Shown here piece by piece: positions 18,206-42,596 of a stretch of DNA of 64,000 bases. How positions within the stretch are numbered: the first letter of the stretch is position 1; each line of letters begins with the position of its first letter. The notes under the pieces were generated by a model. It was not told the origin of the DNA. It was given only the letters and a program-made list of their open reading frames with translations, and searched no databases. The stretch is from Paraburkholderia sp. Tr-20389 (GTDB taxonomy: Bacteria > Pseudomonadota > Gammaproteobacteria > Burkholderiales > Burkholderiaceae), in NCBI RefSeq assembly GCF_017104565.1, contig NZ_JAAGPD010000022.1:1-64000 (forward strand). The letters run 5' to 3'. Made by a program: the position numbers and the translations under genes.

Positions 18206-18826
18206 ATGCATCCTCGCCTCTCTCTCGCGCTCGTCATCATGGAAGCGCTGGCTATTCTTGCCTACGCGATCTCAGGATTTATCGAGGCTCGTACGAAACG
18301 GCTCGATGCTGTTGGGACTTTTCTTGTGGCGATGGCGACTGCTTTCGGCGGCGGGACGGTTCGAGATATTTTGCTCGATCGGAGGCCGTTCTATTGGGTC
18401 GAGCATCAGTGGTACGCGATTCTGATTTTCGTCCTGTCGTTTTTCGCGCCGTTTGTGTTGAAGGCTTATACGCGGGTTTTTAACGAGCGCGTGTTGCTGG
18501 TGGCGGATGCTGTTGGGCTGGGGCTGTTTAGCATCTCGGGGACTTCTTTAGCGCTCGATGCGCAGATGCCGTGGTTCGTGGCTTCAATGATGGGCGTCGC
18601 GACCGGCGTGTTCGGCGGGATTATTCGCGATGTGATCTGCAATGAGGTCCCGCTGATTCTGCGGGACTCTCGGCCGTATGCTACTTGTGCGCTTGTTGGA
18701 TGCTGGCTGTACCTGCTGCTCGATCACTTTAACTTCGATACCGTCTACAGCGTGCTGATTGCTACGGGGTTTATTCTTGTGGCGCGGCTGGTGACGTTTA
18801 AGTGGGATGTCAGGTTGCCGCATTAA
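18206..18826 (+). CDS. TRIC-type cation channel family membrane protein (UPF0126/YadS-like)
   Basis: A 206-residue protein with about seven membrane segments in two repeats. Each repeat carries the family's glycine/charged motif: FGGGTVRDILLDRRPFYWVE at about residues 47-66 and FGGIIRDVICNEVPLILRD in the second half. Bacterial members form trimeric potassium-type channels related to eukaryotic TRIC (known); some are annotated as glycine transporters in E. coli, so the solute is uncertain. It starts 15 bp after the Smr gene and is probably in one operon with it. Confidence 0.88.
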   Translation: MHPRLSLALVIMEALAILAYAISGFIEARTKRLDAVGTFLVAMATAFGGGTVRDILLDRRPFYWVEHQWYAILIFVLSFFAPFVLKAYTRVFNERVLLVADAVGLGLFSISGTSLALDAQMPWFVASMMGVATGVFGGIIRDVICNEVPLILRDSRPYATCALVGCWLYLLLDHFNFDTVYSVLIATGFILVARLVTFKWDVRLPH

Positions 18827-18868
18827 CGAGCCAACGAGGACGGTATCTCCATACGCCACGCCATCCAC

Positions 18869-20896
18869 TCATATCTCGGAATCGCATTCGAACGCTTCTG
18901 CCCCTGCTTCCGGTTCGTCGTCGGAAACCTCAAGTACATCTGGAATGAACTTTGCGTGCGTCAATCGAAGATAGTCTTTCGCGCTCTCAGCATCTGCTTC
19001 GTATGAAAGTTGCTGATTGATAAAGCGCAGTTTGGCGCGTGCATCATTTATCACGTCTGCCCAACTCCGCACCCAGACAGTAATGTTTTGGTCCGCATCG
19101 TCGTAAACTTGTCCTTTTGGGCGGTCGCGCTGATTCGCTTCCTTCTTCGCAAATGCGTCTAGGTCGTTCGAAACCGCCACAAAGGTCCACTTAGCCGGCA
19201 CATCCCGAAATCGCTCATCGTTGGACACAGCAATTGCATATTTTTTTACCTGAGTAATCACCTCGTCGTCTATCTTCTTCGACGGTCGCTTAAGCTCAAC
19301 AACAAGATACTCGTACTCACCCGTTCGAGGCTGTATGGCCTTGTGAAGCATGAGATCGATGCGCCCACGCTTGCCATTTCCCAAATCTACCGGCGCGTCC
19401 AGATTCAGCTCTTCTTCTCGATGTCCCAGTTTCGCGATGTGCTTTTGCAGAACCTCTTCAAGACGCTGCTCGCTTCCCGCGAGCGCATACTCTTCGTGAA
19501 ACAGCCATGACTCATTTTCCAGCATTTTGTGAAGTTGATCCCTCTCAAGAAGAGCCTCCTTGCTCTCCTTGTCAAAAATCAAGGTTTCAAGGCCATTCAA
19601 GAAGTCGAGTCGATTCGCGACGATCTTTGCTGAACTGATGATCGACGAGAGACTCGTCTTCTTCAAGAGAGCGGCGAGTTCATTCTGAGCTTCTTCCTTG
19701 AGTCCAAGTACTTCACTAATAATTACTTGGACAGAATCCGGATTTTGCCGAATTGCCTGCGCCAAAAGCTTAAAAGTGAACTTCTTCGACTTTGCATCAG
19801 CTTCTTCGAAGGAAGGAAGATAACTTTGAACGTTCACCGCCAAAATATCAAAAACCTGCCGCTCCGCAGCTTCGACCGGGCCAATGTCAGCCTTTTCGTC
19901 GTACGGGTAAATCTGCTCCTCTTTCCATTTAGCTACAACTTCACTCTGATTCTCGGCGAGGCGCCTTCTAAAATGATCCTTAGTCTTGCTCCTCGCAGCT
20001 CTCATTATCACTTGCACGTCAGGATGAATATCTGACAATACAAGCTCACCAGTCTTGTCCAGCTCGCGGAATAGGTCTGCCTTGACATAGACTGTAAAAT
20101 TGAATCCTGGCGCACGCACCTGTTGACCGACCGGCAGTTCGTGGAGGGTCACACCATTAGCATCACAAAGATGTAGCACACGCTCCGTCGACATTCTCCA
20201 CTCTACGATCGTGAGTGAGACCTGCACCCGCCTTCCGTCCGACAGTTGAACATCCCGTAGCCGATAATCGACTTTGTCCTGTTGAACATCTGCGGGGTTG
20301 ACGACATTACCATCGAACTCAAGACGAAGCTCGGGATACTCTGTCAAATATGCAGCAAAGATCTTTGCCAGTTCTACGAGTGCTGAGCCATCCTTGAACG
20401 ATCGGAAGTCGTGAGTAACGTTTTCAATCACGACCTCTGTCCCTGTTGACTGAGAGACATCAAGATCAATCGGGTCGCTAACGTCGAAATCGTCTATCGC
20501 GCTGGCATGACCAACGATATGGTATGTGCGGCGCCCTTCCCCTTCAGAATAGATGGTGTTCCATTCAATCCGTTCACCTAGCGAAAACGCCTTGAAACGC
20601 CCCTTGCCATTCTTTCCGTGCAGGGCGCGCCCGAATTGCTTGCCCTGCTGCTTCTTCCATGAATCGCCGAGGCCGCCGAACAAAGAGGTGATCCGATTAT
20701 GATTGATCCCATAGCCATCGTCCCGCACCCTTATGCAATCCAATCCACCCATCTCGTTATATTCGGGAATGATGCGCACACGAGACGCGCCAGCATCAAA
20801 ACCATTCCAGATAAGCTCGGATAGCGCCAGAATCGGCTTTGCTGAAACGAGTGATTGAATAAAATCACGCTTCGCGGTCACGTGTACTTTTGCCAT
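18869..20896 (-). CDS. GHKL ATPase fused to a Shedu-like PD-(D/E)XK nuclease domain; putative defence protein
   Basis: A 675-residue protein. The N terminus is an Hsp90/MutL/MORC-type ATPase: N-box ELIWNGFDA at 27-35 (E27, N31), G1 loop DDGYGI at 59-64, G2 loop GKNGKGRFKAF at 94-104. The middle (about 210-450) is helical and unassigned. The C terminus (about 455-620) resembles the Shedu/DUF4263 nuclease: ESWLF at 462-466, D514 in RIDLML, E534-L-K536 in VVELKRPSK and a following Q549 (ITQVKKY), giving a D-ExK active site. Shedu is an established anti-phage nuclease; ATP-gated DNA cleavage upon infection is my inference. The gene is visibly AT-richer than its neighbours and sits alone between chromosomal genes. 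The ATG at 20896 has GAGAGAG upstream. Confidence 0.8.
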   Translation of the reverse strand: MAKVHVTAKRDFIQSLVSAKPILALSELIWNGFDAGASRVRIIPEYNEMGGLDCIRVRDDGYGINHNRITSLFGGLGDSWKKQQGKQFGRALHGKNGKGRFKAFSLGERIEWNTIYSEGEGRRTYHIVGHASAIDDFDVSDPIDLDVSQSTGTEVVIENVTHDFRSFKDGSALVELAKIFAAYLTEYPELRLEFDGNVVNPADVQQDKVDYRLRDVQLSDGRRVQVSLTIVEWRMSTERVLHLCDANGVTLHELPVGQQVRAPGFNFTVYVKADLFRELDKTGELVLSDIHPDVQVIMRAARSKTKDHFRRRLAENQSEVVAKWKEEQIYPYDEKADIGPVEAAERQVFDILAVNVQSYLPSFEEADAKSKKFTFKLLAQAIRQNPDSVQVIISEVLGLKEEAQNELAALLKKTSLSSIISSAKIVANRLDFLNGLETLIFDKESKEALLERDQLHKMLENESWLFHEEYALAGSEQRLEEVLQKHIAKLGHREEELNLDAPVDLGNGKRGRIDLMLHKAIQPRTGEYEYLVVELKRPSKKIDDEVITQVKKYAIAVSNDERFRDVPAKWTFVAVSNDLDAFAKKEANQRDRPKGQVYDDADQNITVWVRSWADVINDARAKLRFINQQLSYEADAESAKDYLRLTHAKFIPDVLEVSDDEPEAGAEAFECDSEI

Positions 20897-21075
20897 GGGT
20901 CTCTCTCGGGCAAGCTTACTATGCGGAGGTTCCTGCAGTGCTACATCGCACCTTGCAAACTTTATCCGTATGATTATGACACGGTCCTGCCAAATCGCTG
21001 TTGCCAATGCAACGGTGTATCTGACTTAGATTCGATCAACTGCCAAGCGATACAATGATCATTCGGCATTCAATG

Positions 21076-21384
21076 CTAATCGCTAACACGGGCCAACTGC
21101 CGTTTCATCAATTGCCCGGCGAGAAGGCTTTGAAATACCTCCAAGTCGAATCGCGCGTTCGTTTCGGCTTCATTTGCCAATGCTTCCAGAGCAGACAGTA
21201 GTTTGACTCTATCTGACCTTCGCACGCGAGATGTTTCGATGGTCCGAATCAATACCGCACATTGCGCAAATTGCCGTACGTGCCGCTCTCCGGCGACTAC
21301 GGCCTCTTGTAACAGTGCTTCCAGCAAATGAATGCGCCTGTCCAGAAATGATGATTTTGCGGCGAAATTTGAAGATGAAGTCAT
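21076..21384 (-). CDS. Small helical protein, possibly of the phage Icd/Ash-like type
   Basis: A 102-residue protein starting MTSSSNFAAKSSFLDRRIHL, with predicted amphipathic helices (LLEALLQEAVVAGERHVRQF, LLSALEALANEAETNARFD). No catalytic motif, signal or membrane segment is seen. It starts at the end of a phage C4-like structured region on the same strand; in phage P1 and relatives such RNAs precede and control small inhibitor genes (known). A second frame (21209-21484) overlaps it, so which frame is translated is not settled. It lies 180 bp upstream of the GHKL/nuclease gene on the same strand and could be co-transcribed. Confidence 0.5.
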   Translation of the reverse strand: MTSSSNFAAKSSFLDRRIHLLEALLQEAVVAGERHVRQFAQCAVLIRTIETSRVRRSDRVKLLSALEALANEAETNARFDLEVFQSLLAGQLMKRQLARVSD

Positions 21385-21601
21385 GGTGCGATTTCCCTAA
21401 CAAAAAAACAAGACAATCGCCCGACACTCGCTTCCAAACGGGTGAGCGGGCACATGACAAGGTTGGAAGACCGGAATCGCACACCGGCGAGCCTTACGGC
21501 TCCCCTGCCACGGCCCGCCCGTAGACGTGCTGAGGCAACTGCATCGCCCGCTTGCGCGGGGTCAATGCAATGGTGCGATTAGCAGGCTTCCAAACCCGGC
21601 C
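21383..21601. repeat. Paired direct repeats flanking the C4-like region
   Basis: atggtgcgatt occurs at 21383-21393 and again near 21568-21578; gcttccaaac occurs near 21430-21439 and near 21585-21594. The two pairs enclose the structured core at 21438-21522. Such short repeats are expected where an antisense-type RNA pairs with its own leader, but could also mark an old duplication. Confidence 0.5.
21438..21522 (-). ncRNA. Phage C4-like structured RNA (probable)
   Basis: Read on the minus strand, an outer stem is formed by acgggcgggc with gcccgctcacccgt. Inside it are cgtggcaggg, the hairpin GAGCC-gtaa-GGCTC, the stem CCGG-tgtgcgatt-CCGG and the unpaired ccaacc. This order of elements matches the C4 antisense RNAs of P1/P4-type phages and prophages as I remember them. 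It directly precedes a small ORF on the same strand, as C4 RNAs do. The assignment rests on visual matching only. Confidence 0.5.
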
Positions 21602-21690
21602 ACCTTTGTTTAGGTAGCAATCCAAAGTATATGGCTACGCACCAACCGCCCTTTCGCCCGCACAAGCGAAACCTGGAGCCCAAAAACCAG

Positions 21691-21725
21691 AAAGCCCCGA
21701 GCGAATCTTATCCGCTCGGGGCCTT
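21691..21725 (-). terminator. Terminator of the sugar ABC operon
   Basis: Arms agccccgagcg / cgctcggggcc located 33 bp beyond the ATPase stop codon on the minus strand. The T tract is short. Confidence 0.7.
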
Positions 21726-21757
21726 CCTAAAACCAACTCAACAACAGTAATTAACCT

Positions 21758-22873
21758 TTAAGCAATCCGCTCTTCCGACTTCGGATCAAACAGAACTGCC
21801 TTAGAAACATCGAACATCAACGACATGTTCTGATCCGGTTGCGGGTTAGCGCCCGGGTGAACGCGGCTGACGATGCGCTTGCCATTCACCTGCGCGAACA
21901 CCAAAGTATCCGGACCCGTAGGCTCGATCACGTCGACCTTAACTTCGATCGGCTGAAGCTTGCCGTCTTCGACGTTGTGAGCATTACGCGTATCGGTGAT
22001 ACGTTCAGGACGCAGGCCAAGAATCACTTCCTTGCCGACATGCCCCTTCACGGCGCCATCGAACGGCAGATTCAGCACGCTACGTTTCACGCCAGTATCC
22101 AGCTCAAGCCCAACCCCAGAACCCTGCTCGACAACCTTACCTTGAATGAAGTTCATCGGCGGCGCACCGATAAACCCAGCCACGAACAGGTTCGAAGGCG
22201 AATCATAAATCTCTTGCGGCGCACCGAACTGCTGAACGATCCCGTCCTTCATGACGGCAATCCGATCGCCCAAAGTCATAGCCTCGATCTGATCGTGCGT
22301 CACATAAACGATCGTCGTGCCAAGACGCTGATGCAGCAGCTTGATCTCCGACCGCATCTCAATACGCAACTTGGCGTCGAGGTTCGACAAAGGCTCATCG
22401 AACAGGAACATCGCCGGATCACGCGCCAGAGCACGCCCCATCGCCACCCGCTGACGCTGACCGCCGGAAAGCTGACCCGGCTTGCGATCCAGCAGATGCT
22501 CGATCTGCAGCAGCTTCGACACGCGCGAAACGATCTGATCCTGCTCGCCCTTCGGCACCTTGCGAATGTTCAGGCCGAAAGAGATGTTGTCGCGCACCGT
22601 CATCGACGGATACAGCGCATACGACTGGAACACCATCGCGATATCGCGATCCTTCGGCGACAGGTCGTTGACCGTCTTGCCGCCGATCTGAATCTCGCCC
22701 TTCGTCACGGTCTCGAGACCGGCGATCATGTTGAGCAGCGTCGACTTACCGCAGCCCGAGCCGCCGACGAGAATCAGGAACTGACCGTCTTCGATGTCGA
22801 TGTTGACACCCTTCAGGACAGGCACCCCGTTCGGGTAGGTCTTGTACACGTCACGGATGGAAAGGCTTGCCAT
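21758..22873 (-). CDS. Sugar ABC transporter ATPase (MalK/UgpC/GtsD type)
   Basis: A 371-residue ATPase energising the adjacent importer. Walker A is GGSGCGKSTLLN (residues about 37-48), the Q loop FQSYALYPSMTVRDN, the signature LSGGQRQRVAMGRALARDP, Walker B MFLFDEPLSNLDAKLR and the switch His VTHDQIEAMTLGDR. The C-terminal TOBE/OB extension (from about 240) is characteristic of CUT1 sugar transporters, where it can bind regulatory proteins. It is the last gene of the four-gene minus-strand set, 118 bp after the second permease gene. Confidence 0.93.
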   Translation of the reverse strand: MASLSIRDVYKTYPNGVPVLKGVNIDIEDGQFLILVGGSGCGKSTLLNMIAGLETVTKGEIQIGGKTVNDLSPKDRDIAMVFQSYALYPSMTVRDNISFGLNIRKVPKGEQDQIVSRVSKLLQIEHLLDRKPGQLSGGQRQRVAMGRALARDPAMFLFDEPLSNLDAKLRIEMRSEIKLLHQRLGTTIVYVTHDQIEAMTLGDRIAVMKDGIVQQFGAPQEIYDSPSNLFVAGFIGAPPMNFIQGKVVEQGSGVGLELDTGVKRSVLNLPFDGAVKGHVGKEVILGLRPERITDTRNAHNVEDGKLQPIEVKVDVIEPTGPDTLVFAQVNGKRIVSRVHPGANPQPDQNMSLMFDVSKAVLFDPKSEERIA

Positions 22874-42003: not shown

Positions 42004-42596
42004 TCAGATCTCCCATGTTGCTGGCTCCGCGAACACCGTAAAAACGAACGGTTGGACTGCTGGTTCGCAAAAGCCAAGACGACGCGCGCTCTGGTTAAGG
42101 CGCTAACGACGTCGGGAAAACGGCAAAAAGTACCGTTGAGGAGCCAAAATCTCGAAAAGGGCCGCCTGCATGCCGAAAAGCACGCATTCGGTGGCTCCCA
42201 CGCGAAAAACCAGCGTCGAAGTGCGCTGGTGAAGACTACATATGACCGTCAATACCGTGCAGGGGCGGTAAGAGCGACGCGTTGCGTCTGAAGGACCGGG
42301 GGACGGTGGTAAAAACTATCAAATCCCTGCAACCGATGTGACCGGATTTTATCAGGGTTTTATAGATCGTCAACACTATAAACTGTCAAAACCATAACCA
42401 ATTGTAATAATGAACAGTGTTCAGGAGCGCCAGGCGCCCTGCATACGGGCGTTCCAGCCGATTGGCATTTTCCGTATTCAACGTGCGCTTCCTAACGCAG
42501 GTAAAATCGACAATCCATTCGGCGCGGTCGTTCGTCATCAGTTGGTCACCGCGCCGCCTGCATTCCTAGCTCCTGCATCGCAGCCAGAACAGACCG
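42004..42596. other. 593-bp intergenic region between the transglycosylase and ubiD genes
   Basis: No coding sequence is supported. Around 42310-42420 the sequence becomes markedly AT-rich (for example tttataga and ctataaactgtc), likely promoter DNA for one or both divergent genes. No riboswitch or repeat was recognised. Confidence 0.5.

What the first reader, a model, noticed from the sequence alone, without database searches (positions are those of the whole stretch)
18869..20896. GHKL ATPase fused to a Shedu-like nuclease: candidate single-gene defence system
Seen: N-terminal GHKL motifs (ELIWNGFDA 27-35, DDGYGI 59-64, GKNGKGRF 94-101) and, at the C terminus, ESWLF 462-466, RIDLML with D514 and VVELKRP with E534/K536, a D-ExK active site like DUF4263 (Shedu). 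The roughly 250-residue middle part is unassigned. Known: Shedu is an anti-phage nuclease family and GHKL ATPases act as ATP-driven clamps. Inference: an Hsp90/MORC-like clamp gates or loads the nuclease on invader DNA. The gene is AT-richer than its surroundings and stands alone between chromosomal genes. I know of no named system with this exact pair of domains, but cannot search.
Basis: partly seen in the sequence, partly recalled or inferred. Interest (0 to 1): 0.88.

Follow-up and report, generated by a model that had tools for sequence, protein, structure and literature searches.

The report
ATPase-fused nuclease, likely phage defence
This is a probably horizontally acquired bacterial gene that joins an ATP-driven clamp domain to a predicted DNA-cutting domain; a published relative of the same architecture protects bacteria against phages, so it is a new member of a known kind rather than a new system.

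Summary
The GHKL ATPase is confirmed (Pfam HATPase_c_3, 5e-12). A C-terminal PD-(D/E)XK nuclease is very probable: E451, D514, E534, K536 are invariant in 101 of 101 aligned rows. The architecture is not new: predicted in 2008 as "paraMORC3" (PMC2292703) and shown in 2025 to be anti-phage as VcSduA, a GHKL-Shedu protein in which E27A or K557A abolishes protection (PMC12137116). Membership of Shedu proper is indirect: Pfam SduA_C (DUF4263) and PADLOC do not detect this protein, and classical SduA matches it only weakly, but it matches GHKL proteins that carry SduA_C (hhalign 99.8%). Its nearest relatives come from several phyla, not its own genus; it fills a 2.9-kb AT-rich insert at a variable site. 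Homologues occur on prophages and plasmids and beside restriction genes. No structure could be computed.

The parts
18869..20896 (-). Gene for a 675-aa GHKL ATPase - PD-(D/E)XK nuclease (paraMORC3 / VcSduA-like)
   Evidence: Open frame; 100 aligned full-length homologues
20525..20827 (-). GHKL ATPase core, residues 24-124; motif I glutamate E27 at 20816-20818
   Evidence: Pfam HATPase_c_3 5.4e-12; motif residues invariant 101 of 101
19577..20299 (-). Middle part, residues 200-440: rest of the presumed S5 domain and a probably helical clamp; no Pfam family
   Evidence: No Pfam hit there up to E 10; conserved across the family; domain naming is inference from paraMORC3 and VcSduA
18947..19579 (-). 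C-terminal nuclease domain, residues 440-650; E451, D514, E534, K536
   Evidence: HSDR_N_2 2.8e-5, just under its cut-off; invariant residues; hhalign of this part with GHKL-SduA_C proteins 97.7%, E 1.7e-12
21076..21384 (-). 102-aa ORF between the C4 RNA and the gene; no relatives found
   Evidence: no PHROG; tblastn against the loci then held found only itself below E 0.19
21438..21526 (-). C4 antisense RNA (Rfam RF01695), as in prophage and satellite immunity
   Evidence: 56.8 bits against a gathering score of 45; second of three copies classes in its genome, 3 in 9.0 Mb; folds with a 9-nt recognition loop
21386..21393 (-). Box complementary to the C4 recognition loop, directly before the start codon of the 102-aa ORF
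21573..21580 (-). Second copy of the same box, upstream of the C4 RNA
18825..21758 (.). AT-rich insert between the TRIC-like gene (18206-18826) and the sugar ABC transporter ATPase gene (21758-22873)
   Evidence: The two flanks are 155 bases apart in one relative (L232) and about 0.75-1.3 kb with other contents in three more; G+C 0.507

Best explanation
The gene encodes a stand-alone anti-phage nuclease of the GHKL-fused kind (paraMORC3; same architecture as VcSduA, Shedu type I-D). Shown here: a GHKL ATPase domain with its motifs, a distant full-length relationship to GHKL-SduA_C proteins, invariant nuclease residues, mobility, and a foreign insert. Inferred: the protein works as a homodimer; ATP binding closes the GHKL gate; the middle region encloses double-stranded DNA as a clamp; this places the C-terminal PD-(D/E)XK domain to cut invading DNA, perhaps sensed by free ends as in other type I Shedu proteins, so that phage DNA is restricted while the host survives.
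For: GHKL domain; invariant E27/N31/D59/G61/G63/G97/G99 and E451-D514-E534xK536 in 101 of 101 rows. hhalign with GHKL-SduA_C proteins: whole length 99.8%, E 2.5e-27, nuclease part alone 97.7%, E 1.7e-12. Published relative of the same architecture: VcSduA protects against T1-like phages in E. coli and X29 in V. cholerae; E27A (same residue number as here) and K557A abolish it; cultures survive at all tested MOIs. Homologues in 46 plasmid records, 2 phage records and 63 viral loci. Near neighbours of 38 homologues match 361 different PADLOC models against 127 for distant ORFs of the same loci. The tree puts it in an 11-row clade from several phyla, apart from the versions in its own genus.
Against: Not itself detected by Pfam SduA_C or PADLOC; match to classical SduA only 11-12%. 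No invariant Lys/Arg stands out in the presumed S5 part (best R239, 86 of 101), so the usual ATPase 'finger' was not found. No structure model. The neighbour comparison counts models, not ORFs, and ORFs were picked by my own heuristic. No phage data exist for this branch.
Confidence: 0.75

Rival explanations
1. It is a Type II-like restriction enzyme of the BbrUII/HgiDII sort (GHKL ATPase with sequence-specific cleavage) that has lost or never had its methyltransferase, or works with an unlinked one.
For: Best NCBIfam hit is BbrUII/HgiDII restriction enzyme, E 2.7e-16, residues 25-206 for the best stretch. One plasmid homologue overlaps a type ISP restriction-modification gene; others have type I methyltransferases nearby. 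Iyer et al. place paraMORCs in restriction-modification operons.
Against: 59 bits against a cut-off of 550; the match is mostly the shared GHKL part. In the window no methyltransferase was seen among the flanking ORFs (read by eye). A sequence-specific cutter without its methylase would endanger the host.
Confidence: 0.12
2. It is a DNA-repair or recombination factor of the MutL/MORC type, not a defence gene.
For: The GHKL part resembles MutL, topoisomerase VI B and MORC in solved structures; MutL profiles in NCBIfam hit residues 21-70.
Against: All MutL models are far below cut-off. Distribution is patchy: 4 of 145 genomes of the genus have a full-length close (group A) version, the window's included. 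Location on prophages and plasmids and the published anti-phage activity of the same architecture.
Confidence: 0.06
3. It is cargo of a P4-like satellite or prophage that serves the element (excluding rivals), kept under control of a C4 immunity RNA; defence of the host is a by-product.
For: C4 RNA 5' of the gene on the same strand with its target box at the next start codon. In the genus, ORFs after C4 include DUF3987 (3 of 59), DnaG-type zinc ribbon (2) and AlpA (1), as in satellites. In two Pasteurella phages and two related viral contigs the gene is followed by an sRNA-Xcc1 and, in the one tested strongly, an antirepressor.
Against: A C4 was found near only 4 of 71 phage, plasmid and viral loci and 2 of 80 genome loci, and in none of these six upstream on the same strand. 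No integrase or other phage gene was seen in the insert. This is compatible with, not opposed to, the main explanation.
Confidence: 0.2

Closest known systems
VcSduA (Vibrio cholerae Shedu, type I-D; Adams et al. 2025, PMC12137116)
   Same: N-terminal GHKL ATPase with motif I glutamate E27, middle clamp, C-terminal PD-(D/E)XK nuclease, single gene (section 12 read)
   Different: Its C-terminus is called DUF4263 by the authors; this protein has no Pfam SduA_C hit. E-to-K spacing 530 there, 509 here. Sequence not available for direct comparison; no phage data here
paraMORC3 family (Iyer et al. 2008, PMC2292703; parts 1 and 2 of 4 read)
   Same: GHKL plus S5 plus a C-terminal RE-fold domain with E-D-ExK; a subset is stand-alone in proteobacteria, as here
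   Different: No defining sequence model was at hand; the S5 domain was not confirmed here
GHKL-SduA_C proteins of rhizobial and Caballeronia plasmids (L286, L287, L288, L291)
   Same: Homologous over most of the length, hhalign 99.8%, E 2.5e-27
   Different: About 590-640 aa by my start choice; carry a detectable SduA_C domain (27.8 bits in L286, below cut-off in L287 and L291)
BbrUII/HgiDII restriction enzymes (NCBIfam NF050001)
   Same: GHKL-type N-terminal region aligns (residues 25-206)
   Different: 59 bits against a 550-bit cut-off
Classical Shedu SduA (Pfam PF14082)
   Same: PD-(D/E)XK motif order; weak profile similarity
   Different: hhalign 11-12%, E 0.0025-0.0028; no GHKL domain in those used

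Membership tests
paraMORC3 | N-terminal GHKL domain with conserved ATP-binding motifs | tested here: met
   HATPase_c_3 5.4e-12; motif residues invariant in 101 of 101 rows
paraMORC3 | S5 domain after the GHKL domain | tested here: inconclusive
   No S5 family hit; no invariant Lys/Arg between residues 101 and 339; structure prediction failed
paraMORC3 | C-terminal RE-fold domain with E-D-ExK | tested here: met
   E451, D514, E534, K536 invariant in 101 of 101; HSDR_N_2 in 24 of 24 members of A1 at E up to 1. Motif level only, no structure
paraMORC3 | Stand-alone gene or in a restriction-modification neighbourhood | tested here: met
   No RM gene seen around the window gene (by eye); RM neighbours in several homologues
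Shedu (DUF4263 / SduA_C) | DUF4263 domain detectable by its own model | tested here: not met
   No PF14082 hit up to E 10; none in 24 and 11 homologues up to E 1; no PADLOC Shedu model up to E 10
Shedu (DUF4263 / SduA_C) | Nuclease domain homologous to SduA_C by profile comparison | tested here: inconclusive
   Strong with GHKL-SduA_C proteins (97.7%, E 1.7e-12; 99.8% whole length), weak with classical SduA (12%, E 0.0025)
VcSduA (Shedu type I-D) | GHKL plus PD-(D/E)XK in one protein | tested here: met
VcSduA (Shedu type I-D) | Sequence homology to VcSduA itself | not testable with these tools
   VcSduA's sequence was in no collection I reached
VcSduA (Shedu type I-D) | Anti-phage activity that needs both active sites | not testable with these tools
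   Needs an experiment
BbrUII/HgiDII restriction enzyme | NCBIfam NF050001 cut-off of 550 bits | tested here: not met
   59.3 bits
MutL | NCBIfam MutL model cut-off (180-756 bits) | tested here: not met
   At most 28.3 bits
C4 antisense RNA (RF01695) | Rfam gathering score and loop complementary to the start of the next ORF | tested here: met
   56.8 against 45 bits; 8-nt box at 21386-21393 before the ATG at 21384. Regulation itself not tested

The most novel reading that the evidence does not exclude
The defence nuclease is gated by a phage-satellite immunity RNA: the C4 antisense RNA keeps the 102-aa ORF untranslated and, by polarity, keeps the downstream nuclease low, until an incoming satellite or phage with matching boxes titrates C4 and releases the operon. 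A borrowed immunity switch would then serve as the sensor of a defence gene.
Probability: 0.1. Interest if true: 0.7.

Novelty: new member of a known kind. Interest (0 to 1): 0.36.

Why it matters
It documents a widespread branch of GHKL-fused defence nucleases that the Pfam SduA_C model and the 2023 PADLOC models miss, and gives an alignment with invariant residues for testing. Two offshoots are directly testable: whether shortened relatives without the ATPase still restrict phages (is the ATPase a brake, a loader, or neither?), and whether a C4 immunity RNA can control a defence gene.

Tried and rejected
No fold search was therefore run, and no statement here rests on a model.

A fixed C4-gene association: rejected. 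Model R1 found C4 in 4 of 71 phage, plasmid and viral loci and 2 of 80 genome loci, none upstream on the same strand; Rfam itself found C4 in 1 of 9 and 0 of 9. C4 is common in the genus (102 of 145 genomes), so C4 here marks a prophage or satellite origin rather than a family trait. A search of the papers for 'C4 antisense RNA' with 'defence system' gave none (the spelling 'defense' was not tried).

The 102-aa ORF as a conserved partner: no PHROG and no relative below E 0.19 in the loci held; wider databases were not searched with it.

Direct Shedu membership by classical SduA profiles: weak. Solved structures: the profile of the nuclease part matched no chain up to E 10; the whole profile matched only GHKL proteins convincingly. 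A search of 274 genomes with the GHKL-SduA_C fragment L285 at E 1e-10 found nothing, nor did phages or viral contigs.

Full report
OBSERVATION. The coordinates hold an open frame on the minus strand, 20896 to 18869, 675 aa. Pfam gives HATPase_c_3 at 5.4e-12 (residues 24-124, above its cut-off), HSDR_N_2 at 2.8e-5 (24.6 bits, just under its cut-off of 25) and a weak PDDEXK_9. PADLOC shows only a weak Cas4 hit, E 0.036; NCBIfam's best is BbrUII/HgiDII restriction enzyme, 59 bits against a 550-bit cut-off.

FAMILY. In the genus, 17 of 145 genomes match at E 1e-3. Of these, 4 hold a full-length close version (the window's included), 4 a divergent full-length version, 1 a shortened one and 1 a broken one in two pieces; the other 7 are short weak matches. 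The class search rang in 132 of 369, mostly through short matches at residues 17-70 that look like MutL; 5 genomes besides the window's own have a full-length close version. The phylum search rang in 12 of 398 and the family search in 17 of 249 at E 1e-8. An alignment of 101 rows (window plus 100 homologues) shows 18 invariant columns, among them E27, N31, D59, G61, G63, K81, G97, G99, R100, E451, D514, E534 and K536. Those are the GHKL motifs and an E-D-ExK nuclease site.

SHEDU OR NOT. No SduA_C (PF14082) hit was seen in the window protein up to E 10, nor up to E 1 in 24 close homologues or 11 divergent ones. Profile comparison with nine SduA_C proteins from the same genus is weak, 11-12%. 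A frameshifted locus, L285, passes the SduA_C cut-off and matches this family at 97.7%. Its intact relatives on plasmids are GHKL-nuclease proteins: SduA_C reaches 27.8 bits in L286, 19.6 in L287 and 21.5 in L291 against a cut-off of 27, and is not seen in the more distant L289. The family profile matches four of these at 99.8%, E 2.5e-27 over 548 columns, and the nuclease part alone at 97.7%, E 1.7e-12. So the protein is a distant relative of GHKL-SduA_C proteins, but does not meet the DUF4263 model itself.

PRIOR ART. Iyer, Abhiman and Aravind 2008 (PMC2292703, parts 1-2 of 4 read) defined paraMORC3: GHKL, S5, and a C-terminal RE-fold domain with E-D-ExK, with a stand-alone subset in proteobacteria and bacteroidetes. 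Adams et al. 2025 (PMC12137116, abstract, section 12 and passages) showed that VcSduA, GHKL plus DUF4263, protects against T1-like phages in E. coli and against X29 in V. cholerae, that E27A and K557A abolish activity, and that cultures stay protected at all tested MOIs; they cite paraMORC3 and class it as Shedu type I-D. A review (PMC12904381, passages) states that another type I Shedu, EcSduA, binds DNA ends through an N-terminal clamp and nicks at a fixed distance; PMC12409362 section 15 repeats the VcSduA account. The Gu et al. Shedu classification was not held.

ORIGIN. In relatives of the genus the TRIC-like gene and the transporter gene that flank the insert are close: 155 bases apart in L232, about 0.75-1.3 kb apart in L229, L230 and L234, where other genes (read by eye; one LysR-like) fill the gap; in the other 6 of 10 loci the transporter side was not seen in the stretch held. 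The window has 2.9 kb there at G+C 0.507, against 0.634 outside. In a quick tree of 86 rows the window protein pairs with a Rhodoferax MAG (67% identity, support 99) inside an 11-row clade (support 98) with Nitrospirota, Cloacimonadota, Lentisphaerota, Omnitrophota and a viral contig; the versions of its own genus lie in another clade. Several of these neighbours are metagenome bins, so single phylum labels may be wrong; 19 forks were open. Horizontal transfer is well supported, its source is not.

NEIGHBOURHOODS. Named examples: a Psychrobacter plasmid copy beside DRT2, a cytosine methylase and a LlaMI-type enzyme; a Phaeobacter copy overlapping a type ISP restriction enzyme; a Sinorhizobium copy near an integrase and VapC; Pasteurella phages with the gene among tail genes and antirepressor-like genes. 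Against: copies in an Alisedimentitalea transfer region and in a Salmonella record have no annotated defence neighbour, and L077 has no annotation. A rough test: for 38 of the 80 genome loci (full-length match and at least 9 kb on each side), 150 of 152 nearest ORFs matched 361 PADLOC models at E 1e-10, 145 of 146 distant ORFs of the same loci 127; the most frequent model was type I methyltransferase, 6 of 150 near and 1 of 145 far at most per model. The three left-out ORFs were dropped for size limits. This counts models, not ORFs, and my ORF picks are heuristic.

THE C4 RNA. Rfam finds a C4 antisense RNA at 21438-21526, minus strand, 56.8 bits. The genome has three in 9.0 Mb, so one lying within 0.6 kb upstream of this gene on the same strand is unlikely to be chance (my estimate). 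It folds with a 9-nt loop whose complement, AATCGCAC, stands at 21386-21393, just before the start codon of the 102-aa ORF, and again at 21573-21580. In 32 C4 loci (the best-scoring of the genus and the window) 24 have a match of 8 or more bases at +25 to +44, so the arrangement is the usual one. ORFs after C4 in 31 of those loci (59 of 78 picked ORFs scanned) include replication primase/helicase types and AlpA, as in P4-like satellites (that likeness is recalled). The association is not general: 6 of 151 other loci have a C4 nearby and none has it upstream on the same strand. A terminator-like hairpin at 21689-21727 separates the transporter gene from the insert; no sigma-70-like promoter was seen on the minus strand, though the scan finds no more than shuffles do.

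SHORTENED FORMS. Five genomes of a sister genus (label g275) hold a version without the GHKL part: 403, 398 and 353 aa in three, at least 367 aa at a contig end in one, and two pieces in one. Another, in the window's genus, keeps the first 40-odd residues fused directly to the middle part, 412 aa. All five kept as proteins retain the VVELKRP site. Two of the g275 loci share a YceH-like neighbour (by eye), so the short form may be inherited. Viral loci L110, L111, L116 and L133 have similar short ORFs. Whether they act is unknown.

MECHANISM. Best supported: a dimeric ATP-gated clamp that loads or licenses a DNA nuclease on invading DNA, restricting the phage without killing the host. The domains and residues are shown; dimerisation, clamp, DNA-end sensing and direct restriction are inferred from VcSduA and Shedu. 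Weak points: no structure, no clear S5 lysine or arginine, and no direct comparison with VcSduA, whose E-to-K spacing (530) falls just outside the range in 101 rows (498-528).

VERDICT. Observation confirmed; interpretation partly supported; a new member of a known kind. The genome's genus is not named; one locus of the sister label g277 is nearly identical to a Burkholderia ubonensis locus in the tree, so the window's genus is another one of that family (inference).

Noticed in passing
21438-21526, 21386-21393, 21573-21580 (minus strand): C4 antisense RNA with its two target boxes, one at the start of the 102-aa ORF upstream of the gene; a prophage or P4-like satellite trace.
   Followed up: yes
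L005, L062, L063, L051, L064 (proteins P0002-P0006); regions L221-L225: GHKL-less relatives of 353-412 aa that keep the middle part and the VVELKRP nuclease site; one has an internal deletion that leaves the first 40-odd residues.
   Followed up: partly
L070 10146-10229, L075 10145-10230, L087 10140-10223, L088 10134-10219: An sRNA-Xcc1 follows the homologue in two Pasteurella phages and two viral contigs; an antirepressor-like or regulator gene comes next in the two phages.
   Followed up: partly
18825-21758 and relatives L229, L230, L232, L234: The spot between the TRIC-like gene and the sugar transporter gene is variable: nearly empty in one relative, other genes in three.
   Followed up: partly
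L074 3055-9968: On a Phaeobacter plasmid the homologue overlaps a type ISP restriction-modification gene by a few bases, which suggests one operon.
   Followed up: no
42203-42407 (plus strand): Rfam Bp1_738, a Burkholderia sRNA of unknown role, 184 bits.
   Followed up: no
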